Source: a virus
Virus record (IMG/VR): IMGVR_UViG_3300035698_014170
Location: 1-64,000 of that record
DNA: 64,000 nt
Strand: one strand, 5' to 3'
The notes beneath the pieces were generated by a model, which saw only the letters and a list, made by a program, of their open reading frames with translations, was not told the origin of the DNA and did not search any database. Each line of letters starts with the position of its first letter. The first letter of the stretch is position 1. The position numbers were made by a program, and so were the translations under genes. Below, in pieces: positions 2,903 to 32,895 of the stretch.

Positions 2903-4858
2903 ATGGACAATAAAAAGAACGAATTATCTTTATTAAACAAATTATTCCCAGCTCCTTCTACAATAAGCACAGATTCATTTTCTACATTATCTACTGGCGA
3001 CGGCCTTAGATCTTTATCAGACGACGAACGTATGCTATTACGTAAATCGGGTATAACAAATAAAGATTTACAGTTAGCTGTACAAAGAGAACTTGAAGTA
3101 AATTATGATAGGGCTATAATTTATAAGGATGTGGATAGAGCTAGAGAGCACTGGATGATGAGCAGTGCATTATCACTCTTTGCAGATACATGTTCTGGGT
3201 TAAACTCTTTACAAAATGCTTCTGCTTGGATAACAAGTGATTCTACAAAGTACGTAAACGAACTTACTAAGCTTTTTGATAGAATCGGAGTAGAGGAAAA
3301 GATATATGATTGGACTTGGTCTACTGCTCTTTATGGAGATTTGTTTCCTAAGATAGAAGGACGTCCAGGTTACGGTGTTATATCAGTAGATGATAAGAGC
3401 CATCCTATTAATATGTCCCGAATAGATGTAAACGGAGTACTAATAGGATTTTTTGATTCATCTCTTGGTGGTGGTAATCAATCTTCTGTTCAAATCGTTC
3501 CCCCGTGGGAGTACGTACATTTCCGTCTTCTTGGTGCTAAAAGAAGGCGTCCTACATCTAATGACCCCAATTACCAAGAATACAGATCTGTTCATCTAAT
3601 GACCCATGATACCAGACAAGCCAGTGATTGTTACGGAGCATCAGTTCTTATAGATGGTATACCTGTTTGGAAAAGATTAAGATTAGCAGAAGACAGTATC
3701 CTACTTACTAGGCTAACAAGAGGTCTTATGAGATACATTTATAAGATCAAAGTAGATAGCTGGGAATCAGAATCAGTGGCTGAGTTAATGGACGAATATG
3801 TAACTATTTTAAAAAGAGCTAGAGCTATTTCTACCGACGAAGACAATCCAGATTACTCTAGCAAGTTTGGTATTATGAGCAGCTTGGAAGATCTGATACT
3901 TCCTGTTTGGGGAGACCAAGGTGATATAACTATTGATAAGATAGGCGGCGATCCAGATATTCGTTGGATCGTAGACATTGATAAACTAGAAGAGCAGCTG
4001 GCTATGGCATTGAGAGTACCATTAGCACTGTTAGGCGGGAGTGCAGACGATGCTACCGGTGCGCTTGGTTCTGAGTCTATATCTAAATTAGACATCCAAT
4101 TCAGTAAGACATCGAAAAGACTTCAAAGAGCTATAAAAGAAGGTCTTACAAGGATTTGCCAAATACATCTAGCTTATATGGGAATGGATCCAGATTCCAA
4201 GTTATTCGAAGTCCATCTAAACGAAACATCGTCCGCAGAAGAAGAGCAATTAAAAGACACACTTGATACAGGTGCAGACATTATCGATAAGTATATGGAC
4301 ATGTTTAATAGGATGCAAGAGAACAATCCTCTTATGGAATTTGATCAAATTGAATTCTTTAACTACATGAATCAAAAGATACTTAAGTTGAATGATCTTG
4401 ATATAAATGATTATATTACAATTAAAGAAGTTGCAGAGCCAGTTCGAGAAGTCGAACCAGCAGATATAGGACCTGCTACAGGAATGGGCGGAGAAGATCT
4501 TCCAGAACTAGAACCAGCAGGCAAAGAAGGAACAGAAGAAGCAGAAGCACTTCCTTCGAATATGGCTCCTCCAACAGAACTTCCAGTAGAACGAAAGAGT
4601 CGTAATAAGAGTACAAAGTCAATTATTTCAGAGTATCTTAAGAAACAAGACGAGGAAAAGGATAAGTTATTAAAAAGACAACCTGTTATGAATCTTGATC
4701 TAACTGCTGCTCTACCTATTAAGAACTCTTATTCAAAGGGTATAATGAATGAGAGCACTTGGACAGATCTTTATGGACATGCAAAAGTAAAAGTAGTTAT
4801 TAATGAAAAGTTGCATGAAGACGAGAACAAAGGTAGTATAATAAAGATAAAGGATTAA
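2903..4858 (+). CDS. gp20: Portal (head-tail vertex) protein, T4 gp20-like
   Basis: 651 residues. This is the dodecameric ring at the capsid vertex through which DNA enters and leaves. T4-type portal features are visible: the R-E-H-W-M-M...L-F-A-D-T-C-S segment near residue 85, the Y-D-W-T-W-S-T-A-L-Y-G-D-L-F wing segment near residue 140, and the crown/tunnel region L-E-E-Q-L-A-M-A-L-R-V-P near residue 360, followed by G-A-L-G-S-E-S-I-S-K-L-D-I-Q-F. It is longer than T4 gp20 (about 520 residues) because of a Glu/Pro-rich, probably disordered tail after about residue 505. ATG 2903 has AAAGG 4-8 nt upstream. It opens the head genes, but a block of small genes separates it from the protease and capsid genes. 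Confidence 0.88.
   Translation: MDNKKNELSLLNKLFPAPSTISTDSFSTLSTGDGLRSLSDDERMLLRKSGITNKDLQLAVQRELEVNYDRAIIYKDVDRAREHWMMSSALSLFADTCSGLNSLQNASAWITSDSTKYVNELTKLFDRIGVEEKIYDWTWSTALYGDLFPKIEGRPGYGVISVDDKSHPINMSRIDVNGVLIGFFDSSLGGGNQSSVQIVPPWEYVHFRLLGAKRRRPTSNDPNYQEYRSVHLMTHDTRQASDCYGASVLIDGIPVWKRLRLAEDSILLTRLTRGLMRYIYKIKVDSWESESVAELMDEYVTILKRARAISTDEDNPDYSSKFGIMSSLEDLILPVWGDQGDITIDKIGGDPDIRWIVDIDKLEEQLAMALRVPLALLGGSADDATGALGSESISKLDIQFSKTSKRLQRAIKEGLTRICQIHLAYMGMDPDSKLFEVHLNETSSAEEEQLKDTLDTGADIIDKYMDMFNRMQENNPLMEFDQIEFFNYMNQKILKLNDLDINDYITIKEVAEPVREVEPADIGPATGMGGEDLPELEPAGKEGTEEAEALPSNMAPPTELPVERKSRNKSTKSIISEYLKKQDEEKDKLLKRQPVMNLDLTAALPIKNSYSKGIMNESTWTDLYGHAKVKVVINEKLHEDENKGSIIKIKD
4835..4847 (+). 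promoter_or_regulatory. AGTATAATAAAGA motif, possible promoter -10 box
   Basis: AGTATAATAAAGA overlaps the end of the portal gene about 40 nt before the next start. A near-identical motif sits at 5062-5074, and TATAATAA(A)G recurs upstream of other small genes (5469, 27070, 27160, 28967). Repetition ahead of starts suggests a promoter -10 element, but no consistent -35 is visible at this copy. Confidence 0.3.
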
Positions 4859-9929: not shown

Positions 9930-10450
9930 TGAGTACTGATTTACAAGACGCAGTTGATTTTATTAACAGTGAATTGAATAACGAAGGTGTTGTATCAAAC
10001 ACAGACGAAGATTCCGAAGAAGTAGCTATTAAGAAGTTGACGGAGAAGGGTAAAGTAAAAGAAGATTTAGATATAGAGAGAGGCAAAGAAGAAGAACAAG
10101 ATTTTGTAGAACAGGATTCAGATATAGAAAGAGGTAACGAAGTTTCTGAATTAGACAGTTATATTAATAAAGAAGCTCTTCGTATAGCTTCAACTATAAC
10201 TAGAAAAAATTTAGTAGATATAATTACGAATATGCTAAAATTATCTATTGAAGGTATATATGTAAACGGCGGAGGTCTTGCAGATGTACTTAACACAGCA
10301 GAGGAAATAGTACAAGCGTCAGGTTGGGCAATAGATGAAATGGAGGATTCTTGGGATGAAATTAAAGACGAAATGGAATCAACGTTGCTAGGCGACGGAA
10401 ATGATAATGACGACGAAACTTACGAATCTAAGAAAACAACTAAAAAATAA
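9929..10450 (+). CDS. Acidic protein sharing an N-terminal tag with the gene at 12986
   Basis: 173 residues, strongly acidic with helices. Residues about 18-38 (E-G-V-V-S-N-T-D-E-D-S-E-E-V-A-I-K-K-L-T-E) are almost identical in the protein at 12986, also at DNA level. The shared block ends in L-T-E, which fits the (I/L)-x-E pattern cut by T4-type prohead proteases, so I infer a core-targeting peptide and an internal head protein. ATATAGGAGCAAATA precedes ATG 9929. Confidence 0.55.
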   Translation: MSTDLQDAVDFINSELNNEGVVSNTDEDSEEVAIKKLTEKGKVKEDLDIERGKEEEQDFVEQDSDIERGNEVSELDSYINKEALRIASTITRKNLVDIITNMLKLSIEGIYVNGGGLADVLNTAEEIVQASGWAIDEMEDSWDEIKDEMESTLLGDGNDNDDETYESKKTTKK

Positions 10451-10820: not shown

Positions 10821-11126
10821 ATGGATATTAAAACAGCAATAGATTGGATAATTAATTCGTCTGGTCTGACGTATAATCAAATGCTTGGAATAACAATAGC
10901 CGATGTTCGTACAAGATTTCCTAATAAAGATATGTCTAATACATTTATTAAACATGTGTTAGCTTTTGTTAGAGCTTATGCACAAGGTCAGAAAGATCAA
11001 TTTGACCTTGATACTATTAAAACTCAGGTTACTACTTGGCTAGATAATAACTTTCCCGGCAACGAGATCGAAAAAGGTAGATTAAATGATAAGCCTTATA
11101 TCAAAATATGGCTGGAGGGTAAATAA
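10821..11126 (+). CDS. Hypothetical protein upstream of the beta-helix gene
   Basis: 101 residues, compact helical composition. Its stop overlaps the next start as TAATG, so it is translationally coupled to the large surface protein that follows. No family recognised. Confidence 0.55.
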   Translation: MDIKTAIDWIINSSGLTYNQMLGITIADVRTRFPNKDMSNTFIKHVLAFVRAYAQGQKDQFDLDTIKTQVTTWLDNNFPGNEIEKGRLNDKPYIKIWLEGK

Positions 11127-12649
11127 TGGCTGAAGTATTAGAAGGTAAAGAAACAGTATTCTTTGTAGGAGGTACCGGAAACAAAACTGGGACCTCACTT
11201 GCCGGAGGATGTACAAGAGCTTATTACGATGCTAATATAGCAGAGTCTGGTGATCTTAGTAAGATAATGGGAGATGATGGCGCATGTTTAATTACTGCAT
11301 CAGGAGTCACTTATAATAATACAACAGGAGTTTTATCGTCGGCTAGTGTAGCAGCAGTAGCAGAGGCTGGTATGGTAGCTCTTGTTATAGGAGGTATGTT
11401 AACTCCTGGTGAGTATGAGATACTTTCAGTTGTAGGAGATACTGTAATAATAGATGCCGGGCTTTCTCTGGGGGGCGACACCTCTGTTACTGTAAATTTA
11501 GGAGGGGCTTTTGATACAGCAGTAACAGGATTTGCTAATTTGAATGCTTCAAGTTATAGTTTGTGGCTGTTGGATAACAAAGACGAAGCAACTATGGGAA
11601 CAGTGACAACATCGGCTGCCGGTTCACTAGCAGCAAATACATACTTATATTGGATTGGATTTAATACAACGCCTCCTATTAATTTAGATGAGCCTTCAGG
11701 AGATACGGACTATAACGAAACATTAAAAACAGCAGGAACATATTATTCTTCTGCATTAGGTATATTGATAAATGGCGGAACAGCAATTATAGGCACTAAA
11801 GTTTCAAAAAATACTTCGGCACAAGACTTCGCTTTGAACCTATCAAATGTTTCAAATATGGTAATAAAAAACATAGCAATTACCCACGCAACAGGCAACT
11901 CGTTAATTTTCCAGTCCGGTCCGACTCAAGGACTACAATTCTTAGATTGTTCGTTATCAACTTTTAATGAGTTTAATGTCGCTAACGTAATGCTATCATT
12001 ACTTATAAAAGGTACCTATATTGGAGATCTGAATACATCTTTTAACGGTACATTTCGACACAACAATAAAATTATAAGTTCAGTATTTGATCTAAAGACA
12101 AAGATTGGTATAGCAAGCGATAACATAGAAGTACAAAACTGCTTATTTGTAGGAGGGAGCAAAGGAATATCTGCCGATAGTTTAGGAGGAGTGAAGAATT
12201 GTATTTTTTATAATCAAACAACTACCTGTATTAGTTTTGAAGGCTCAGGCTCTAAAAACAATATTATAAATAATATTTTTGTACCTCAAGCAACTAAAAA
12301 TGTCTTAGACATAACGTCAGCAGGAGGTGGGTCAGTAGGACTATTTAGTAATAACATATACTATGGAGCAGACGGATCACCACTGGCAAATCCATTCGAC
12401 GATGTCGGCAGTGATTTTATTCCGTATGGCGGAGGTAATCAGGCAGTAGATCCTATGTTTGTTGATCCGGCTAATAATGATTTTAGAGTTTTTTCTGATT
12501 CGCCAGCAGTTGGAGCAGGGATGCGAGGTTTATATCCTGGAGGAGATTCGATTGGAGGTTTTCAACCCGAAACAAATTCAACAGGGTTTGGTAAATTCCG
12601 GGGTACAAATAGATTTGGTGAAGTATATAAACGTTGTAATCAAATATAG
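11126..12649 (+). CDS. Right-handed parallel beta-helix virion surface protein
   Basis: 507 residues. The middle and C-terminal half show rungs typical of parallel beta-helices: repeated short strands with N-N-x-I/F turns (K-N-N-I-I-N-N-I-F-V near residue 385) and the closing pattern D-P-M-F-V-D-P-A-N-N-D-F-R-V followed by S-P-A-V-G-A-G, common in pectate-lyase-like and polysaccharide-binding folds. The N-terminal about 120 residues are small, Gly/Ala-rich and probably attach it to the particle. It lies among head genes, so a capsid decoration or fibre is likely; catalytic activity on sugars is possible but no active site can be named. Confidence 0.65.
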   Translation: MAEVLEGKETVFFVGGTGNKTGTSLAGGCTRAYYDANIAESGDLSKIMGDDGACLITASGVTYNNTTGVLSSASVAAVAEAGMVALVIGGMLTPGEYEILSVVGDTVIIDAGLSLGGDTSVTVNLGGAFDTAVTGFANLNASSYSLWLLDNKDEATMGTVTTSAAGSLAANTYLYWIGFNTTPPINLDEPSGDTDYNETLKTAGTYYSSALGILINGGTAIIGTKVSKNTSAQDFALNLSNVSNMVIKNIAITHATGNSLIFQSGPTQGLQFLDCSLSTFNEFNVANVMLSLLIKGTYIGDLNTSFNGTFRHNNKIISSVFDLKTKIGIASDNIEVQNCLFVGGSKGISADSLGGVKNCIFYNQTTTCISFEGSGSKNNIINNIFVPQATKNVLDITSAGGGSVGLFSNNIYYGADGSPLANPFDDVGSDFIPYGGGNQAVDPMFVDPANNDFRVFSDSPAVGAGMRGLYPGGDSIGGFQPETNSTGFGKFRGTNRFGEVYKRCNQI

Positions 12650-12985: not shown

Positions 12986-14488
12986 ATGGACAATTTAATT
13001 AGTAAAATGTTAGACGATAGTGACGAACTTCAGGACAAGTTAGTAGAATGTCGGGGTATAGAAGAAGGCATTGTATCGAACACAGACGAAGATTCTGAAG
13101 AAGTAGCTATTAAGAAACTGACAGAAGAAGAAACAGAATTTGAGACTAACACAGACACAGAAGCAGATATGTCCGGCGATGTAAACGCAGAAGCCGAAGA
13201 AGATCATAGTGAAGAGGGCGAAGAAGTAGATAAAGAGTACTTCGGTAAATCAGGAGACACCTATTACTATTTAATAGGCAATGAATCTGACAGCGGTGTA
13301 GTAGAAGATCTTCAAATCGTTGACCAAGAAGGCGAAGTAGTTTATAGTGCTAAAGATAATGAAGCAGAGATAACCAATGTAGTTGATTTCATTATCCAAG
13401 CAATACAAGAAATGGACATAGAAGATATATCTTATGATGTGTTTGAAAAATACATTATGCCTAAGTTAGTTGAGCCAGAAGAAGAGGAAGAAGAGTTTAG
13501 CGAAGATGAGTTCGGCGAAGAAAATGAAGAAGATATGATACCTGACGAAGAGGATACGTTCGAATCAATTAGTAGGACTAAGTATGTTTACAAAGATAAA
13601 GATTACGAAGTTGCTTTGCTTCCTGAGAACAAAGTTCGAGTAGGCGGAAAGATATTTACTTTATCAGAAGATACATTAAGTTTTTATAATATTAAAGAGA
13701 GTAAAGTAAACTTTGAAAGTTTACGCGATCTTGCTAAGGATATGTTAAGAGCGATGGACGAAAGTGAATTAAAGGAATTAAAAGAAGGTTACGAAGAAGC
13801 AGGTGTAAGAGATGGAACTGGTCCTAACAAACGTTCGCCTCGAAAAGGCATGGGTAGAAGAAAAGCAGCTGGGGAGACTTGTCCTGCTGAGGTAGACGAA
13901 GAGGGTTATAATCCTTCTGGAGTAGGTTCAAATGTTTGTAGTAAGTGCGGCGCTAAAATAGGCGAACCAAAAGATGGAATATCTGTTTGTCCTAACTGCG
14001 GTAATAAAAATAGAATGCTTGGCAAGAATGAATCAAAAACCAACGAAGGTTTTGAAAGTATCGAAGCAGCCGAAAAATTTTTAAATGTTAATGGTTTAAA
14101 GCGTGCAGAAAATACCACGGAAGAACAAATAATGGAAGCTGCTTACAGTATTAGAAAACTTCAAAACACTTTTATTGAAAAAAAGGAAGCAAATATGAAG
14201 AAAACAAATGAAGATATCACAACTGATGTAAAAGACCTTCAGAAGAAAGCAGAAGCAGCGGTCAAAGACGGCGATTATACGAAAGCAGCAGATTATGTTA
14301 GCCGACTTGCTAATGTTGAATCGTCTGTAGGAACAGTTGAAGATGAGTCAGCTGTCGTAGAGCCAATTGCAGATGAAGCACCTGAAGCATCTGAAGAAGA
14401 TGTAGTTGAAGAGGAAGAAGTAGCAGAGGATGTAAAAGAACAAGTAGACTTCTTAGACACATTACTAGAAGAAGGTATGAATAGATAA
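12986..14488 (+). CDS. Acidic modular head-core protein with zinc ribbon
   Basis: 500 residues, extremely acidic. Residues about 26-47 repeat the tag E-G-I-V-S-N-T-D-E-D-S-E-E-V-A-I-K-K-L-T-E of the gene at 9929. A central zinc ribbon (C-S-K-C-G-A-K-I-G...C-P-N-C-G-N-K-N) sits near residues 314-335, followed by an E-S-K-T-N-E linker also found in the genes at 14637 and 30832. The C-terminal third is coiled-coil-like and acidic. Position directly before the protease and capsid genes and the acidic character fit a scaffold/core protein (compare T4 gp67/gp68/gp22), but I see no direct homology. Confidence 0.5.
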   Translation: MDNLISKMLDDSDELQDKLVECRGIEEGIVSNTDEDSEEVAIKKLTEEETEFETNTDTEADMSGDVNAEAEEDHSEEGEEVDKEYFGKSGDTYYYLIGNESDSGVVEDLQIVDQEGEVVYSAKDNEAEITNVVDFIIQAIQEMDIEDISYDVFEKYIMPKLVEPEEEEEEFSEDEFGEENEEDMIPDEEDTFESISRTKYVYKDKDYEVALLPENKVRVGGKIFTLSEDTLSFYNIKESKVNFESLRDLAKDMLRAMDESELKELKEGYEEAGVRDGTGPNKRSPRKGMGRRKAAGETCPAEVDEEGYNPSGVGSNVCSKCGAKIGEPKDGISVCPNCGNKNRMLGKNESKTNEGFESIEAAEKFLNVNGLKRAENTTEEQIMEAAYSIRKLQNTFIEKKEANMKKTNEDITTDVKDLQKKAEAAVKDGDYTKAADYVSRLANVESSVGTVEDESAVVEPIADEAPEASEEDVVEEEEVAEDVKEQVDFLDTLLEEGMNR

Positions 14489-14636: not shown

Positions 14637-16721
14637 ATGTTATTATCAGAAACAACGTTTACTAAAGGAAAAATAGTTGAAAGTGCACAACAGGAATTGC
14701 CTAAAGGTGTTCTTTGTAGAGTAATATATCCAATTTGTAATATTGGGGAGAAGAATCAGAATAATAGAATATACGAAAAGGATCTTTGGGAAAGAGTTAT
14801 TTCCGAAGACCGTGTGATAAGAGTCATGGCGGAAAGAACTTTGTTCGGACAAGCGGAGCACCCTGAAGAGACTCAATCCGATCTTCAATTAACATCTCAT
14901 ATTATTACAAAGACTTGGATAGACGAAAGTGCTAATAAAGTATACCAGGAGATGGACGTACTTAATACGCCTTGTGGTAAGATAATTAACACATTATTAG
15001 AAGCAGGTTGTTTAGTCGGTGTAAGTACAAGAGCAGAAGGCGAGTTAGAAGAAGTTACTGAGGGCAATGAAACTCATTATAAAGTATTGTCTGAGTCTTA
15101 TAATTATGTAACGACTGACTTCACTGCCGATCCAAGTACATTTAATGTTAAGCCAGTTAAGTATGAATCAAACGTAGTACAAGAAATTAAACAAGGTTTG
15201 AAGTCTAAGAAACTTGATAAACATTTTGCAACAGTATTACTTGAATCTATGAAGAGTAAAGAAGCAAAAGCAGTACTCGAATCAATTGGCAAAATAGATG
15301 GGGCTATAAATACCCCAGGAGATAAGAATAACGCAGTACACGGGTTGTCAGAAGGCCTAATTGGGAAGCTAATCCGCATTAAAGAAGGTAAATATAAAGG
15401 TTCTTACGGAGAAGTTAAATCAATCAACGAAGAGGATGTAACAGTCACTTTATCGAACGGTGCAGAGATTATTACTAATACAAATCGTATCGATATGGAT
15501 GCAGTTCAGATTAATACAACTCAAGCAAGCGGAGGCGATACAGTTGAGCCTTTAGAGATTGAGGCAGAAATAACTCCAGCAGAACCACTTGAGGATATGG
15601 GCGACGGCGAGATGGAAGGTCCTGAGGCATTAGAAGACGAGATGCTTAGTGAACCTGAGGATATAACTTTCGAATCTAAAGAAGCTGGTGATAAACCAAA
15701 TTGGCCTAAAGAAGAGCAGTCAGATAAAGAAGAAGAAGAAGATCTTCAAGACGAAGCAGACGCTAAAGATTATAAAGAAACAGATGAATCTAAAACTAAC
15801 GAAGTATTAGAATACAGTATTAACTATAAGAATTCTGCTGGTGAGTCTAATATTTTTGATAAAACAGTCCGGGCTGCTAATACAATCGAAGCCGCAGATA
15901 AAGCACAGTTACTTATTGGAGAAGATAATAAGATTGTTTCTCTAAATGTAGTTGCTTCTGAGAAAGTAAACGAAGTAGAGTTTGACGGACGATATGGAGA
16001 CGACGTATTAGATGATACTAACGATGGTTTGGATCATAGTAAGGACGAAGAAGCAGTTGAGAAAACTGAATCCATTACAAGCACTATTCGCGATCTTAGA
16101 ATTTCCGAAGCTGGTATAAGAGCAGAACGTGAGAAGGCAATCGAACTATTAGAATCTGCAGAGAAGTCTTTAAAAGATGTAGATAGCTCGAAAGCACTTG
16201 AATTCAAAATGCTTAGCACTAGATTAAAAGAAGCGCAATCAAAAGATTCTGTTGAAATAAAAGCTCTTTGTAAAAAGCTAGAAGAGAAAACTTCTGTCAT
16301 TAATAAAGTGAAGAAGCAAGTAGAAGGGTTGAAAGCTTCTTATAATGTCGATTTGCTTAAGATAAAAGAGCAAGTACAGTCTCATAAAAAAGATGTACTA
16401 AAGGTAACTGAGGCTTATAAAGTTAAAATAGCTAAAGAAGAAAAGTTACTCGACGAAAAATATAGACACAAATTTATTAAGAATTATGTAGCAATAAAAT
16501 TAGAATCAACTGGATGTAATCCTCACAGTTCTACTCGGGCACTTCTCGAGAAGAAGAAGACAGTAAAAGAAGTCGATGAAACTTTTGACGAAGTTCTCGA
16601 TGTAATGCGTCAGAATGCACTTCATTCCCGCAAGTTAACAGAAATTATTGTCAATAAGAATGAGAAGATAGATCCAGAAATTAAACGGATTGAAAACAAT
16701 ATAAACGGATTAAACTTTTAA
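14637..16721 (+). CDS. gp21: Prohead protease (T4 gp21-like) fused to KOW domain and scaffold-like region
   Basis: 694 residues against about 210 for T4 gp21. Residues 1-185 are the serine protease that matures the prohead: His75 in G-Q-A-E-H-P, Ser130 in V-G-V-S-T-R-A-E-G, and Asp161 in T-D-F-T-A-D-P. Residues 222-242 are a copy of the in-frame repeat element. Residues about 244-285 form a KOW-like barrel (I-R-I-K-E-G-K-Y-K-G-S-Y-G). Residues about 300-390 are acidic, followed by an E-S-K-T-N-E linker. Residues about 480-694 are a long coiled coil like a core scaffold (T4 gp22), preceded by D-L-R-I-S-E-A-G, a plausible self-cleavage site. The major capsid gene follows 21 nt downstream. Confidence 0.85.
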   Translation: MLLSETTFTKGKIVESAQQELPKGVLCRVIYPICNIGEKNQNNRIYEKDLWERVISEDRVIRVMAERTLFGQAEHPEETQSDLQLTSHIITKTWIDESANKVYQEMDVLNTPCGKIINTLLEAGCLVGVSTRAEGELEEVTEGNETHYKVLSESYNYVTTDFTADPSTFNVKPVKYESNVVQEIKQGLKSKKLDKHFATVLLESMKSKEAKAVLESIGKIDGAINTPGDKNNAVHGLSEGLIGKLIRIKEGKYKGSYGEVKSINEEDVTVTLSNGAEIITNTNRIDMDAVQINTTQASGGDTVEPLEIEAEITPAEPLEDMGDGEMEGPEALEDEMLSEPEDITFESKEAGDKPNWPKEEQSDKEEEEDLQDEADAKDYKETDESKTNEVLEYSINYKNSAGESNIFDKTVRAANTIEAADKAQLLIGEDNKIVSLNVVASEKVNEVEFDGRYGDDVLDDTNDGLDHSKDEEAVEKTESITSTIRDLRISEAGIRAEREKAIELLESAEKSLKDVDSSKALEFKMLSTRLKEAQSKDSVEIKALCKKLEEKTSVINKVKKQVEGLKASYNVDLLKIKEQVQSHKKDVLKVTEAYKVKIAKEEKLLDEKYRHKFIKNYVAIKLESTGCNPHSSTRALLEKKKTVKEVDETFDEVLDVMRQNALHSRKLTEIIVNKNEKIDPEIKRIENNINGLNF
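15300..15362 (+). repeat. Repeat element copy 2 (in frame inside the prohead protease gene)
   Basis: Encodes G-A-I-N-T-P-G-D-K-N-N-A-V-H-G-L-S-E-G-L-I. The DNA GGGGCTATAAATACCCC...GCAGTACACGGGTTGTCAGAAGGCC matches the intergenic copies, most closely that at 29550. It lies between the protease and KOW domains. Confidence 0.6.
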
Positions 16722-16742: not shown

Positions 16743-18269
16743 ATGAAATCTGGTATGAAAAATCTTGTTGAGAAGAGATTAGCTCAGATCAACGGTCGCC
16801 AGACTCAGCTTGCTGAGAATTGGTCACCTTACATTAACGCTGTAGATAAATATATGCAAAGTTCTCGTAACCGTAGTCTTACTATTTACGAGAGACAAGT
16901 TATTGGTCAGTGTTTAGAAAATGCTCTAGATGAGCACGGACTTCGTAAAGGTAAAATGTTTGAAGCAACAGACGAAGGCGATATTTCGTTTTTAGGCGTA
17001 CAGCTTCCAGTTATTGCAGCCATGCTTCCAACTCTTGTAATGAACGATATTGCAATCGTTCAGGCAATGGATCGTAGAACTGCTTCTTTGTTCTACTTCG
17101 ACGCATTGTATGGTAGTGATAAAGGTGCTATTGAAAGTGGCGATACGATGTTAAGCGCACGTACTGGTCACGATCGTACTACTTCGGGTCGTCGTTATGC
17201 GATGGCAATGGTAGAAGACGAAACTTTGTCAGATGCAGCCGGCGATGCCGATGTTTATACTGGCACAGTAGACTATGCACCTGGTGTTAAACGTGGCACA
17301 GTTGTTGTAAAAGACAGTGACGGAAATGAAATTGCTAGTGATAGAGCAACAGATGGCATTATCGCAGCAACAGACTCTTCTGGTGTTACAGGTACTATTA
17401 CTGCTGCTGGTGATTACAGTATTGATTTTAGTACATATAGTTTAGGTTCAGGTCTTGGTGCTGTTATTAGTTATCAGTATCAGTATGATTTGCCTTATGA
17501 TAGTGATTGTTGTGATTATAAGGGTGTTCCGGAAGTAAACTTCCAGGTAACGCAGGCTAATCTTGAAGCCATTGATTTTCCAATTCGTTCTAAATATTCT
17601 ATTGGTGCAAGTATTGATCTGCTTAAAGCACACGGAATAAATTTAGAGACAGAAATTGTAAAATATCTTGGCGGCGAGTGTAAGTTCACAATCGATCATT
17701 ACGGTATTGATTTAATTAATACTGCTGCTGAAGATGGAATTTATATTCCTAATGCTGCAGGAACTGATGTTCTTCGTAATCCGGCTGCTTCTATTACACA
17801 GTGGGACGCAGACGTAGGTAGCGGTGAGCCTTGGTTGTGGAAAAAGCATGAGATAATTGACCGCTTTGAAGAAGGTTCAAATAATATATTTGCAGCATCG
17901 TTGAGAGGCGTTGCCACTTATATTATTGCAGGTAACTCAGTTGCAAGAGTTATTAAACAGCTTCCTAACTTTAAGCCAAGTGCAATGCCAAAGGTTCCGA
18001 CTGGTCCTATGAATATAGGTACGCTTGACGGTAGAACTGTTATTCAGGATCCGTTCTTAACATCAACTCGTTATGTTATGGGTTACAAAGGCGACAACTT
18101 CCTTACCGGTAGTTTTGCTTATTGTCCATATATTCCGTTGTTTGCAAGTCCGACTCTTGTTACTTCTGATCTTTATGCTCAGAAGGGTTTCTTAAGTAGT
18201 GCTGGTTTCAAGGTTACCAACCCTGCGTTGTTAACTTATGGTACTATTACTGGAACTTATTTTGGATAA
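16743..18269 (+). CDS. gp23: Major capsid protein, T4 gp23-like
   Basis: 508 residues, close to T4 gp23 (about 520). The segment I-S-F-L-G-V-Q-L-P-V-I-A-A-M-L-P near residues 81-96, followed by the run from Q-A-M-D-R-R-T-A to F-Y-F-D-A-L-Y-G-S, is characteristic of T4-type capsid proteins. Gly71-Lys-Met-Phe-Glu74 followed by Ala75 is a good candidate for removal of an N-terminal propeptide by the adjacent prohead protease, as T4 gp23 loses about 65 residues. The P-T-G-P-M-N-I-G-T-L-D-G-R segment near residue 420 and the C terminus are also family-like. AGAAAGGTTTCTT precedes ATG 16743. A terminator follows, as expected for the most expressed gene. Confidence 0.93.
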   Translation: MKSGMKNLVEKRLAQINGRQTQLAENWSPYINAVDKYMQSSRNRSLTIYERQVIGQCLENALDEHGLRKGKMFEATDEGDISFLGVQLPVIAAMLPTLVMNDIAIVQAMDRRTASLFYFDALYGSDKGAIESGDTMLSARTGHDRTTSGRRYAMAMVEDETLSDAAGDADVYTGTVDYAPGVKRGTVVVKDSDGNEIASDRATDGIIAATDSSGVTGTITAAGDYSIDFSTYSLGSGLGAVISYQYQYDLPYDSDCCDYKGVPEVNFQVTQANLEAIDFPIRSKYSIGASIDLLKAHGINLETEIVKYLGGECKFTIDHYGIDLINTAAEDGIYIPNAAGTDVLRNPAASITQWDADVGSGEPWLWKKHEIIDRFEEGSNNIFAASLRGVATYIIAGNSVARVIKQLPNFKPSAMPKVPTGPMNIGTLDGRTVIQDPFLTSTRYVMGYKGDNFLTGSFAYCPYIPLFASPTLVTSDLYAQKGFLSSAGFKVTNPALLTYGTITGTYFG

Positions 18270-18934: not shown

Positions 18935-20725
18935 ATGGCATATACATTAAAAATAACAGTTGATAATACAAGGGTTGGCGGTGATTTATCTGGTTATCCG
19001 GCCCTGATTACCGAAGCGAATCTGCCCGATAGTTTTTGGGCTAATGCTCAACTGGACGGTTCTGACATCTGGTGCAATCTGGCCGATGGTACAAAGCTTA
19101 AAAGAGAAATCGCTTATGTAAATGTGGCTAACGAGAAGTTAGAGATGTGGGTATCTCTTCCAACTCTCTCTGGATCGGTTGATACTGAATTTTTTATAAA
19201 CTATGGTAATTCAACATTATCAGAAACTAACGATTTGGATACCTGGGATCCAAACCATAAGCTGGTTTATCATTTCGGAAACGAAGTTGATGGAGTACAG
19301 CCTGACTCATCTCAAGGGAATAATGACGGCGATATAGTTCGCGGTATTTCAAATGTAGAGAGCATTGAAGCTTTGAAATCTCCTGACGTTAGTGCCCATC
19401 AGGGCGTGGCGTGGGATGGAACATATTACTATGCGATTGATACGGGATCAGTGACTAAATATACAGCCGATTGGGTGCAAGTAGGCTCTGTATATTCAAC
19501 TCTTTTTGCAGATGTCGAGAATGAAATCGGGCATGAAACCACCAATGACTATAACCATAATGGCGATGGCTGTCATTATAATGGCAAATTATATATACCA
19601 TTGCAAGGTACAGGTACTAATTTAGGTGGAACTGGAACTTCACAGGCAATTGCAATTATAAATACTAATGGCTCAGGTGAAATGGCATACGATTCCGCTG
19701 AGAAGCTTTGGGATAAAATGTCACAGCGTTACGAGGTTGACGGTATGTACATTGATGGTACATCTGCTTATATTGTTTCGTATGTCAATAATACCACTCA
19801 CGAAGATTCTAAACGAATTAGAGTATGGACGATTGCAGATTGGTCAGAAGGAATTGACATAACAATATCAAGCGGTACTAAGTACATGCAAGGAATAACA
19901 GGCTACAAGGGAGGATTTGCAATTACTTCTGGGTCTGCTTCACTTTATCAAGTGGATTCAGACGGTACTAGAATGGGTCATATTTTATGGAGTAGGACGC
20001 AGGTCGGAGACGGAGATATTGAGGGTCTTTGTTATCGTAACGACATCGATTCGTTATGTGTTTTATGCGATCACATTTCCGATCATAATGGAGATAGTTA
20101 TGTTTATGCCCTTCAACCAACTAATTTAGGTATAGCTGATTTTGATAATGATGGGACTGGTGTAAGATATGTAGATGTACCGTCAGCAACATATTTTGAA
20201 GGATTGTCTGCTATAACTATGGAATGCAAAGCTAAACTTGATGATATTACTGATAGCCAGAGATTTTTATGGTCTTATCCAGGTCTTAGTTTTGAGCCGG
20301 ATCCAAAAGGGACAAATCATGGTATTGCTTTTCACGACGGAAGTGCTTGGAAAAATAGTTCAGAGTTTCCAATAGATGTAACAGGAGTTTGGCATCATTT
20401 TGCTGTTACTTGGAATAAGGATGTTGATAGCGGGGCGTTTAAGTTTTATTTAGACGGTGTCTCTATCGGAGGTTCGGGTAGTCGCACAACTGTTTTAGGT
20501 GTTGATTATAATGATTTCTTTATAGGAACAGGACATGCGACACTTTCTGATCAACTTGATGGTTTGATGGATGAATTTAGAATATCAGATAGTCAGAGAT
20601 CGGCCGATTGGCTCTTAACTGAGGTAAATAATCTAACTGCTCCTGCTGATTTTTATGCAGCCGAATTGTGGCAAATTCCTGCTAGTCAAAGGTGCAATAA
20701 TTTACTTGGAGGTTTAGTAGGATGA
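18935..20725 (+). CDS. Large sugar-binding virion surface protein (DUF2341-like plus LamG)
   Basis: 596 residues. Residues about 1-105 match the DUF2341 pattern (N-T-R-V-G-G-D-L-S-G-Y-P-A-L-I...D-G-S-D-I-W...Y-G-N-S), often found at the front of carbohydrate-binding proteins. A central beta-propeller-like region follows. Residues about 410-580 form a concanavalin/LamG sandwich (W-H-H-F-A-V-T-W, F-Y-L-D-G, F-I-G-T-G, D-G-L-M-D-E-F-R-I). It probably projects from the head and binds polysaccharide. The first several hundred bases are richer in GC and use CTG and CCC codons unlike the flanking genes, suggesting recent acquisition. Confidence 0.65.
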   Translation: MAYTLKITVDNTRVGGDLSGYPALITEANLPDSFWANAQLDGSDIWCNLADGTKLKREIAYVNVANEKLEMWVSLPTLSGSVDTEFFINYGNSTLSETNDLDTWDPNHKLVYHFGNEVDGVQPDSSQGNNDGDIVRGISNVESIEALKSPDVSAHQGVAWDGTYYYAIDTGSVTKYTADWVQVGSVYSTLFADVENEIGHETTNDYNHNGDGCHYNGKLYIPLQGTGTNLGGTGTSQAIAIINTNGSGEMAYDSAEKLWDKMSQRYEVDGMYIDGTSAYIVSYVNNTTHEDSKRIRVWTIADWSEGIDITISSGTKYMQGITGYKGGFAITSGSASLYQVDSDGTRMGHILWSRTQVGDGDIEGLCYRNDIDSLCVLCDHISDHNGDSYVYALQPTNLGIADFDNDGTGVRYVDVPSATYFEGLSAITMECKAKLDDITDSQRFLWSYPGLSFEPDPKGTNHGIAFHDGSAWKNSSEFPIDVTGVWHHFAVTWNKDVDSGAFKFYLDGVSIGGSGSRTTVLGVDYNDFFIGTGHATLSDQLDGLMDEFRISDSQRSADWLLTEVNNLTAPADFYAAELWQIPASQRCNNLLGGLVG

Positions 20726-30831: not shown

Positions 30832-32895
30832 ATGAGCAATAGTGAAATTAATCCAGTTGATTTATTTGAATGTCTTGTAAATGATAACGGCATCAAAGTT
30901 TTTACCGAAGGCAAAGCAGAAATTGAAAATTCACTAGACCGGTTAGCTAAAGTTTCTGGTACAGAATTGTCAGATATTTGGTTAGTCGAAGTAGCAGGTA
31001 AGAAAGTTCCCGAAAGTAGACTAGACGTAATCGACGATATAATGCATTCTAAATACAGTGCAGAATACGACAGTTATCTTAAAGGCGAAACTGGGTTAGC
31101 AGAAAGAAAAAATCGTTTCAAAAACTTAAGAATATCTGAAGCAGGATACAACAAAGGCGATACTGTTAAAGTCGTTAAAGATAGTGAATGGGGTCAATGG
31201 CTTGTCAAATATTATGAAAATGGTAAATATTCAGAAGATAAGACATCTTATCACGATGATAAAGAAGATGCAGAAGGAACAGCAGAGTTTACTCGTAAGA
31301 AAATTGCTACTGCTAACGAATCTACAGAATCAGAAGAAACAGCTCCTGCTGAATTAATTGAAGAACCAGAATTAGACTCTGAAGATGTATCAATGGAAGA
31401 CGGGGAAAAAACTCCTGATAAGAAAAAACAAGATGGTATGGACGAAGTGTCTGATAAAGAGTTGGAGCAACTTATTGATAAGAAAAACGAATCTACTGAT
31501 TCGATGGATAATAGATTACAGAAAATGTTTACTGAGGATAAAATAGAAATTCTTCAAAAGAAAATTGATCGATTAAATGCTCAAGCAAAAGAAACAGATA
31601 GCCAGCAACAAGGTACTAGAAAATCAAGTCGAGGCTACGGACTTCAAAATATGTACGGAGAGATAGATAAAGCAGAAAAGGAAATTGCTGTTCTAAAAAA
31701 AAGATTAGGAGAATCTATTAACGAATCTGTGCAAGAATTAATAGGAGAAGTATCTGGTATAACACAGTTTGAACAGAAGATATTGAATTGGGCAATTGAA
31801 AACAATGTGATAGATAACGAATTTCCTTCTTATAATGACATGATGTATGCAATTTCTCGTCATCCTAAAGCAGAAAAACAATCGTTGTCTTCTATAGGCG
31901 ATAACGAAGTTCGATTAGCCGATAACGCGGACGTATCAGGAATGTATTTAAGATATATTTTAATGCCTAAAGCAAAAGAAGCTTTTAAACACAGTTACTC
32001 AGATACCGAATCTTGGTTTGATGTAGATAAAGAAGGCAATCCTACTAAAGAATCTTTACATATTTGCAACGATTGTAGTAAGACGTTTAGGAGTAAACTT
32101 TCTGAGTGTACGCATTGTAAATCAAAAAACGTAGAAAAAATAGTAGAAGAAATATCAGATCAACTAGCCTTAGGTACAAAGATTGAAATGGAACATACGG
32201 ACGACAAAGAAGAAGCTGCTAAAATAGCAATTGACCATATTCAAGAAGATCCTGATTATTATACAAAACTTAAAAAGATGGAAGCTGGCGGTTGTGACGA
32301 ATCTAAAGTAAACGAATTTGACGACAATAAAGACGGATATACAGTAATTGCAAAAGGTATAGCAGATAAAGATTCAGCAGATGAACTTGCTAATACTCAT
32401 CAAGCCACTGTTATACAAGACGAAGAAGATGAAAAGAAGTTCGCTGTAATCAAAAAGACAGACGAATCTAAAGTAAACGAAGACACTCGTAATACTGTGA
32501 TTACAGCTTTTGATCCACATGGTTATAGTTTATCGGCTGAAGAAATAGATAAAGATACAGGCACTAGAACTCTTACTCTATCAAAAGGCGCCGAAGAATT
32601 AAAAATACAGATTATGCCTACTCAATCAGACGCATACGAAAGCAAAGTAAAGGAACGTGATCAAGGTAGTCCTCTTAATACTAATAAAATAGATTGGGGA
32701 GATAAGGAAGAGGTTCGAGAACTTTTCGTTGAGAATTTTGGCGAAGATTTTGATCCTGCTAATCTAGTAACAGTAGAAGACAACGATGTTAAAACAGCTG
32801 TATATATAGATTACAGTGGAAGAGTTGAATATTACTTTGTTTATTGGAACACTAATTATAATGATCTTCCTACTATTAAGAAGATAAATTTTTAA
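30832..32895 (+). CDS. Large acidic modular protein with ESK(V/T)NE linkers and zinc ribbon
   Basis: 687 residues, strongly acidic. F-K-N-L-R-I-S-E-A-G near residue 100 repeats the D-L-R-I-S-E-A-G of the prohead protease protein and fits an I-x-E cleavage site. A coiled coil lies at about residues 225-300. A zinc ribbon C-N-D-C...C-T-H-C is near residues 408-430. Three linkers (E-S-K-V-N-E twice, E-S-K-V-K-E once) separate small modules near residues 490, 545 and 603; the same linker type occurs in the genes at 12986 and 14637. I infer a virion core component processed by the phage protease. AAGGAACAATA precedes ATG 30832. Confidence 0.5.
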   Translation: MSNSEINPVDLFECLVNDNGIKVFTEGKAEIENSLDRLAKVSGTELSDIWLVEVAGKKVPESRLDVIDDIMHSKYSAEYDSYLKGETGLAERKNRFKNLRISEAGYNKGDTVKVVKDSEWGQWLVKYYENGKYSEDKTSYHDDKEDAEGTAEFTRKKIATANESTESEETAPAELIEEPELDSEDVSMEDGEKTPDKKKQDGMDEVSDKELEQLIDKKNESTDSMDNRLQKMFTEDKIEILQKKIDRLNAQAKETDSQQQGTRKSSRGYGLQNMYGEIDKAEKEIAVLKKRLGESINESVQELIGEVSGITQFEQKILNWAIENNVIDNEFPSYNDMMYAISRHPKAEKQSLSSIGDNEVRLADNADVSGMYLRYILMPKAKEAFKHSYSDTESWFDVDKEGNPTKESLHICNDCSKTFRSKLSECTHCKSKNVEKIVEEISDQLALGTKIEMEHTDDKEEAAKIAIDHIQEDPDYYTKLKKMEAGGCDESKVNEFDDNKDGYTVIAKGIADKDSADELANTHQATVIQDEEDEKKFAVIKKTDESKVNEDTRNTVITAFDPHGYSLSAEEIDKDTGTRTLTLSKGAEELKIQIMPTQSDAYESKVKERDQGSPLNTNKIDWGDKEEVRELFVENFGEDFDPANLVTVEDNDVKTAVYIDYSGRVEYYFVYWNTNYNDLPTIKKINF

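What the first reader, a model, noticed from the sequence alone, without database searches (positions are those of the whole stretch)
14637..16721. Prohead protease fused to KOW domain and core scaffold in one 694-residue protein
In T4 the protease (gp21) and the core scaffold (gp22) are separate genes in the same order. Here the protease is followed, in one frame, by a KOW-like barrel, an acidic region and a long coiled coil. The candidate self-cleavage site L-R-I-S-E-A-G lies before the coiled coil. This ties protease dose to scaffold dose.
Basis: partly seen in the sequence, partly recalled or inferred. Interest (0 to 1): 0.6.

Follow-up and report, generated by a model that had tools for sequence, protein, structure and literature searches.

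The report
Fused phage head protease and scaffold
This phage gene encodes the enzyme that matures the virus head and, in the same protein, the internal scaffold that the enzyme probably destroys afterwards; the fusion is common in phages only distantly related to T4, and what is unusual here is the small extra domains carried between the two halves.

Summary
Window 14637-16721 (+) is one 694-residue ORF, directly before a gp23-type major capsid gene. Residues ~1-170 are a T4 gp21-type (S77) protease with the H/S/D triad in register; 241-280 is a Pfam KOW match; ~300-400 is acidic; ~470-625 is modelled as one long helix followed by a small helical C-terminus. No gp22-family gene was found in the 87-kb record, which is incomplete.

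The fusion is ordinary among T4-distant phages. Bacillus SP-15, Listeria LIS04, Rhizobium RHph_TM61, coliphage IME392, Streptococcus GXN1, QdP_Psa3 and 68 of 80 IMG/VR relatives carry one long protease ORF, mostly directly before the capsid gene. Phage P2 gpO is an experimentally known protease-scaffold fusion.

New support for scaffold function: the gp21 cleavage motif [LI]xE[ASG] is 4.3-fold enriched in the C-terminal extensions; K, Q, D and shifted controls are not.

The KOW is not conserved: one of 45 members by Pfam. The middle is a variable slot holding different small modules (KOW, LPD11, Cys-rich segments). Most likely a protease-scaffold precursor that self-cleaves after shell assembly. 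Whether the middle modules are packaged cargo is untested.

The parts
14637..16721 (+). protease-scaffold fusion gene, 694 aa
14637..15146 (+). S77 prohead protease domain, residues ~1-170; H75, S130, D161 aligned with T4 gp21 H85, S140, D168
   Evidence: an H/S/D triad aligned with that of T4 gp21 is described for the homologous SPN3US protease gp245 in PMC5694885
15351..15353 (+). E239 of strict gp21-type motif LSE|G immediately before the KOW match
15357..15476 (+). KOW-like domain, residues 241-280
   Evidence: Pfam; not confidently modelled
15534..15836 (+). acidic, probably disordered linker, residues ~300-400
   Evidence: sequence; low pLDDT for 283-368
15786..15971 (+). possible small alpha/beta module, residues ~384-445, no relatives found
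   Evidence: sequence; (weak strands only)
16095..16115 (+). LRISEAG, candidate self-cleavage site I-S-E|A, residues 487-493
   Evidence: conserved E in L017 and L101, not in L016
16044..16511 (+). long helix / predicted coiled coil, residues ~470-625 (scaffold)
16530..16718 (+). small helical C-terminal domain, residues ~632-694, alignable with the C-termini of close fused relatives
16743..18269 (+). gp23-type major capsid protein; candidate propeptide site KMFE|A
12986..14488 (+). acidic upstream protein with weak zinc-ribbon-like match, in the position of T4 core genes 67/68; enriched in LxE[ASG] and FE[ASGT]; homologues upstream of the protease in L016 and L017 (and, by eye, L101)
2903..4858 (+). 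portal protein, upstream in the same head block

Best explanation
A bifunctional head-assembly precursor. The C-terminal coiled-coil half acts as the internal core scaffold on which the gp23-type shell assembles; the N-terminal S77 protease rides inside as part of the same chain. Once the shell closes, the protease cuts itself and neighbouring copies at several L/I-x-E|A/S/G sites (including LRISE|AG and LSE|G), removes the capsid propeptide and breaks up the scaffold to make room for DNA. Protease and scaffold are therefore made 1:1. The segment between them (KOW, acidic linker, a small module) is a tolerated, fast-changing insertion slot in the core. Shown: ORF, protease family, triad register, helix prediction, gene order, motif enrichment, wide occurrence of the fusion. 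Inferred: scaffold role, self-cleavage, timing, 1:1 stoichiometry.
For: Protease identity, fold and triad. Direct adjacency to gp23 MCP with no separate gene between, and no phrog_237 (gp22) match in the 87-kb record. Long helix. Same long ORF followed by the capsid gene in isolated phages SP-15, LIS04, RHph_TM61, IME392, GXN1, phiXF1, QdP_Psa3, whereas T4, HTVC008M, C48C1, immuto and Hallingskeid have a ~200-aa protease and at least one further gene before the capsid gene. 68 of 80 IMG/VR relatives have a protease ORF of 381 aa or more. Documented T4 gp21 specificity L/I-X-E and cleavage of gp22 into fragments (PMC9026906). [LI]xE[ASG] in 45 C-terminal extensions: 293 observed vs 67.5 expected (z=28.5), with [LI]xK 1.0x, [LI]xQ 1.1x, [LI]xD 0.6x and shifted [LI]xxE 0.65x. 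Window extension 6 vs 2.1, p=0.017; T4 gp22 8 vs 1.35, p=0.0002; eight phage-collection fused proteins (seven named isolates and one metagenomic genome) sum to 58 vs 11.5.
Against: No detectable homology between the fused C-termini and T4 gp22 (only three gp22 sequences used). Window-only motif enrichment is modest, and the protease half of P0001 also shows it (4 vs 0.47). Among 13 other large window ORFs three lie at 2-3x expectation, the clearest being the upstream ORF 12986-14488 (5 vs 1.7), so a second core protein may share the scaffold role. The record is incomplete, so a gp22-like gene could lie outside. No proteomics.
Confidence: 0.8

Rival explanations
1. Scaffold-borne cargo (an addition to, not a replacement of, the main explanation). 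The middle slot carries small functional domains (here KOW and perhaps a second module; LPD11 in L057; Cys-rich segments in L016 and L017; unassigned modules elsewhere) that are cut free by the protease, stay in the head as internal proteins and are ejected with the DNA, like T4 internal proteins and Alt.
For: Middle differs completely between relatives sharing both flanks. LPD11, a domain named for polyvalent proteins, sits at 230-309 of L057 (E=1.3e-17); phage members of that class are proposed to be packaged and injected (PMC5512222). In P0001 strict sites flank and spare 251-490, and the largest site-free gap coincides with the insert in L016, L017, L045, L077, L087.
Against: The gap test is weak per protein (extension-only p=0.148 for P0001, then 0.046, 0.013, 0.056, 0.079, 0.061), those proteins are related, and the gap was noticed before it was tested. 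Relaxed sites occur inside the middle (LTE, LLE and FE|G in L016; FE|S in P0001 and L017). No known activity for any module.
Confidence: 0.22
2. The middle is merely a neutral spacer: acidic low-complexity linker with decaying modules, some exchanged with neighbouring core genes, expelled or degraded at maturation.
For: High divergence, low-confidence structure, acidic composition, short motifs shared with the upstream core-like gene and ORF 30832.
Against: The KOW keeps a profile score above curated cut-offs, and LPD11 in L057 likewise, which is not expected of decaying sequence.
Confidence: 0.45
3. The C-terminal coil is not the main scaffold but a tether that places the protease in the core; the bulk scaffold is another protein such as the acidic ORF 12986-14488.
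For: That ORF has its own cleavage-motif enrichment ([LI]xE[ASG] 5 vs 1.7, p=0.02-0.03; FE[ASGT] 4 vs 0.64, p=0.002) and a 95-residue helix-like stretch; T4 uses far more gp22 (576) than gp21 (100) per head (PMC5694885).
Against: In IME392 only portal-position gene, fused protease and capsid gene follow terminase in this block; the coil here is the longest in the record.
Confidence: 0.18
4. The ORF is an assembly or frameshift artefact joining two genes.
For: Several relatives show interrupted versions (L027, L053, L054), so sequencing or frame problems occur at this locus.
Against: Intact fused ORFs recur across many independent contigs and isolates.
Confidence: 0.01

Closest known systems
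Fused phrog_207 proteins: Bacillus phage SP-15 (568 aa), Listeria phage LIS04 (559 aa), Rhizobium phage RHph_TM61 (503 aa, annotated 'prohead core scaffolding and protease protein')
   Same: One ORF with N-terminal S77 protease and long coil-rich C-terminus directly before a gp23-type capsid gene; phrog_207 itself is 519 positions and SP-15 matches it over nearly its whole length
   Different: No KOW; extension about 310-380 aa against 514 here
T4 gp21 (protease) plus gp22 (core scaffold)
   Same: Protease fold, triad register, gene order portal - core genes - protease - scaffold - capsid, cleavage motif
   Different: Two genes in T4; the fused C-terminus has no detectable sequence homology to gp22
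Phage P2 gpO
   Same: One protein with N-terminal protease (1-141), middle (142-194), C-terminal scaffold (195-284), cleaving itself and the capsid protein (PMC7552001)
   Different: P2 is not T4-like; gpO is much smaller; relation of its protease to S77 not tested here
Herpesvirus protease-scaffold precursor
   Same: Protease joined to the scaffold in one precursor (own general knowledge, not tested)
   Different: A nested scaffold-only product exists there; no convincing internal start seen here
Polyvalent proteins (LPD domains)
   Same: LPD11 occurs in the middle slot of relative L057
   Different: The window protein has no LPD domain; injection is proposed for that class, not shown for this protein

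Membership tests
Peptidase S77 / phrog_207 head maturation protease | Profile match above curated cut-off | tested here: met
   PF03420 41.6 bits vs cut-off 27; phrog_207 E=4e-31
Peptidase S77 / phrog_207 head maturation protease | gp21 fold and catalytic triad | tested here: met
   5JBL E=3e-11; H75/S130/D161 align with T4 H85/S140/D168
Peptidase S77 / phrog_207 head maturation protease | Cleavage after L/I-x-E | not testable with these tools
   Needs protein; only motif enrichment could be measured
gp22 core scaffold (phrog_237) | Sequence homology to gp22 | tested here: not met
   No phrog_237 hit; hhalign probability 0.2%
gp22 core scaffold (phrog_237) | Coil-rich, position before the capsid gene, many gp21-type sites (works like gp22) | tested here: met
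   gene order
P2 gpO-type protease-scaffold fusion | Protease and scaffold in one chain | tested here: inconclusive
   Protease shown; scaffold role inferred
P2 gpO-type protease-scaffold fusion | Homology to gpO | not tested
   No comparison with gpO was run
KOW domain | Pfam KOW score above cut-off | tested here: met
   27.1 vs 22.3 and 29.6 vs 27 bits
KOW domain | Small SH3-like barrel | tested here: inconclusive
   Strands only, low confidence
KOW domain | Conserved in relatives of this protein | tested here: not met
   1 of 45 members; no KOW hit in L101
Polyvalent protein | LPD or effector domains | tested here: not met
   None in P0001

The most novel reading that the evidence does not exclude
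The protease-scaffold protein of these phages doubles as a cargo carrier: a hypervariable slot between protease and coil receives small domains (KOW here, LPD11 elsewhere) that self-cleavage frees inside the head for ejection into the next host, coupling head assembly to effector loading.
Probability: 0.22. Interest if true: 0.65.

Novelty: new variant of a known kind. Interest (0 to 1): 0.35.

Why it matters
In T4 the protease and scaffold are separate genes; many T4-distant phages evidently fuse them, and records label these proteins 'protease', 'peptidase' or 'hypothetical', so the scaffold half is often unannotated. Enrichment of the protease's own cleavage motif is a simple sequence signature for recognising scaffolds where gp22 homology fails. 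The variable middle slot gives a direct experimental question about what phage heads carry besides DNA.

Tried and rejected
Single-protein pattern scans of IMG/VR with P0001 and with the capsid protein found nothing; an alignment of eight fused proteins was too divergent; a four-protein alignment worked. tblastn of the extension and of residues 380-451 in the phage collection found nothing. Internal start for a scaffold-only product: no well-spaced Shine-Dalgarno before the coil. gp22 homology of the C-terminus: none. Single-sequence AlphaFold of the middle failed. The 'site-free middle' first looked striking but weakened when relaxed L-x-E and F-E sites were considered. Apparent split genes inside the fused clade look like interrupted fused ORFs in L027, L053 and L054; L022 really ends short. 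The tree gives no single origin for the fused or split state (7 changes, long branches, bootstrap unsettled). Literature: searches of the open library found no paper that describes the S77 fusion explicitly, which is not proof that none exists.

Full report
OBSERVATION. Window 14637-16721 (+) is a single 694-residue ORF with a good ribosome-binding site. Pfam places an S77 prohead protease at 39-153 (E=1.2e-10) and KOW at 241-280 (E=5e-7 to 3.5e-6), all above curated cut-offs. AlphaFold2 with 45 sequences gives a confident protease (E=3e-11 to T4 gp21, 5JBL) and one helix from 470 to 625 with a small helical C-terminus; the middle is of low confidence. The triad residues line up: H75, S130, D161 against T4 H85, S140, D168 (PMC5694885 describes an H/S/D triad for the homologous gp245 aligned to that of gp21). 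The next gene is a gp23-type capsid protein and the portal lies upstream at 2903-4858.

HOW COMMON IS THE FUSION. In T4, HTVC008M, C48C1, immuto and Hallingskeid the protease is ~190-220 aa with at least one separate gene before the capsid gene. In SP-15 (568 aa), LIS04 (559), RHph_TM61 (503), IME392 (478), GXN1 (558), phiXF1 (474) and QdP_Psa3 (705) one ORF takes both places. The PHROG for this protease is 519 positions long and SP-15 matches it from end to end, so the database family already contains the fused form. An IMG/VR scan seeded with fused proteins returned 80 loci; 68 have a protease ORF of at least 381 aa, mostly directly before the capsid gene. Of the other twelve, three are cut by a contig end, and L027, L053 and L054 look like interrupted fused genes. 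The seed was fused proteins, so the proportion is biased upward. The protease tree (68 rows, long branches, bootstrap unsettled) puts the window with L016, L017 and L101 (100/99) and cannot settle one origin of the fusion; the T4-type split genes of six named phages form one weakly supported group.

IS THE C-TERMINAL HALF A SCAFFOLD. It has no detectable homology to gp22. But gp21 cuts after L/I-X-E and cuts gp22 into several pieces (PMC9026906). Counting [LI]xE[ASG] in 45 extensions gives 293 against 67.5 expected from shuffling; replacing E by K, Q or D, or shifting the spacing, gives ratios 1.0, 1.1, 0.6, 0.65. The 45 proteins are related, so z=28 is inflated. Eight more divergent fused proteins from the phage collection (seven named isolates plus one metagenomic genome) still sum to 58 against 11.5. 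T4 gp22 as positive control is 8 against 1.35. The window extension alone is 6 against 2.1 (p=0.017). Of 13 other large window ORFs, three lie at 2-3 times expectation, the clearest being the upstream ORF 12986-14488 (p=0.02), which sits where T4 has core genes 67/68. The protease half of P0001 itself has 4 against 0.47, so the motif is not confined to the extension.

THE MIDDLE. Comparing P0001 with L101, L017 and L016 (35-39% overall) both ends align and the middle does not. KOW is found in 1 of 45 members, the window protein itself. L057 carries LPD11 at 230-309 (E=1.3e-17). L016 and L017 have Cys-rich segments; other large members have unassigned modules. Strict sites in P0001 flank and spare 251-490, and the same holds in several insert-bearing relatives, but significance is weak and relaxed sites exist inside. 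So a variable insertion slot is shown; cargo is a hypothesis.

DOSE. T4 heads hold ~100 gp21 and ~576 gp22 (PMC5694885). A fusion makes them 1:1 unless a shorter product is made; no convincing internal start was seen. P2 gpO combines both functions in one chain (PMC7552001), so such coupling is workable.

VERDICT. Real, correctly read in outline, and a variant of an arrangement already abundant in sequence databases and known in principle from P2. The unusual feature is the variable middle.

Noticed in passing
window 9980-10048 and 13061-13129; L016 6001-8541 (res 357-379, 615-637); L017 2645-5128 (res 83-105, 416-438); L099 5344-6297; L100 2441-3373; L101 49-2727 (three copies): A recurring ~23-residue peptide, consensus EGKVPxxKDSEExIIxKLTE, in several different head- or tail-region proteins of the window phage and relatives, two copies inside L016's fused protease; it usually ends in a gp21-type LTE site. 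Copies within one genome differ at synonymous sites. Not found in the other loci held or in the phage collection.
   Followed up: partly
window 30832-32895: 687-aa protein with the same LRISEAG heptapeptide, DESKVNE motifs, a DUF5661 domain (E=1e-11) and a Cys-pair motif; part of it matches L017's upstream core-like ORF (139 residues, 37%) and, by eye, the ORFs in L099/L100 that carry the 23-residue element.
   Followed up: partly
L016, L017, L018, L020, L047, L053, L071, L073, L093 (capsid gene): The major capsid gene is broken into separated pieces in many relatives, as in SP-15 where an endonuclease gene lies between; possible introns or other inserts.
   Followed up: no
window 18935-20725: 596-aa protein two genes after the capsid gene with a LamG-type lectin domain (PF13385 E=4e-16), possibly a head decoration or adhesion protein.
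   Followed up: no
window 11126-12649: 507-aa protein between portal and protease with a sub-threshold DUF5123 match.
   Followed up: no
L012 3917-6091 (Pseudomonas phage QdP_Psa3): Fused protease contains a tandem pair of small repeats (FFDDEAGYY...) in its extension, seen by eye in the alignment.
   Followed up: no
L101 2990-4855: Middle slot holds a module KKAGLPAPDGKGVHTKQFHELAIEIAKGYVEKG...AMKQLGKGKAVKKAHRKT, unlike the window's, without a Pfam hit.
   Followed up: partly
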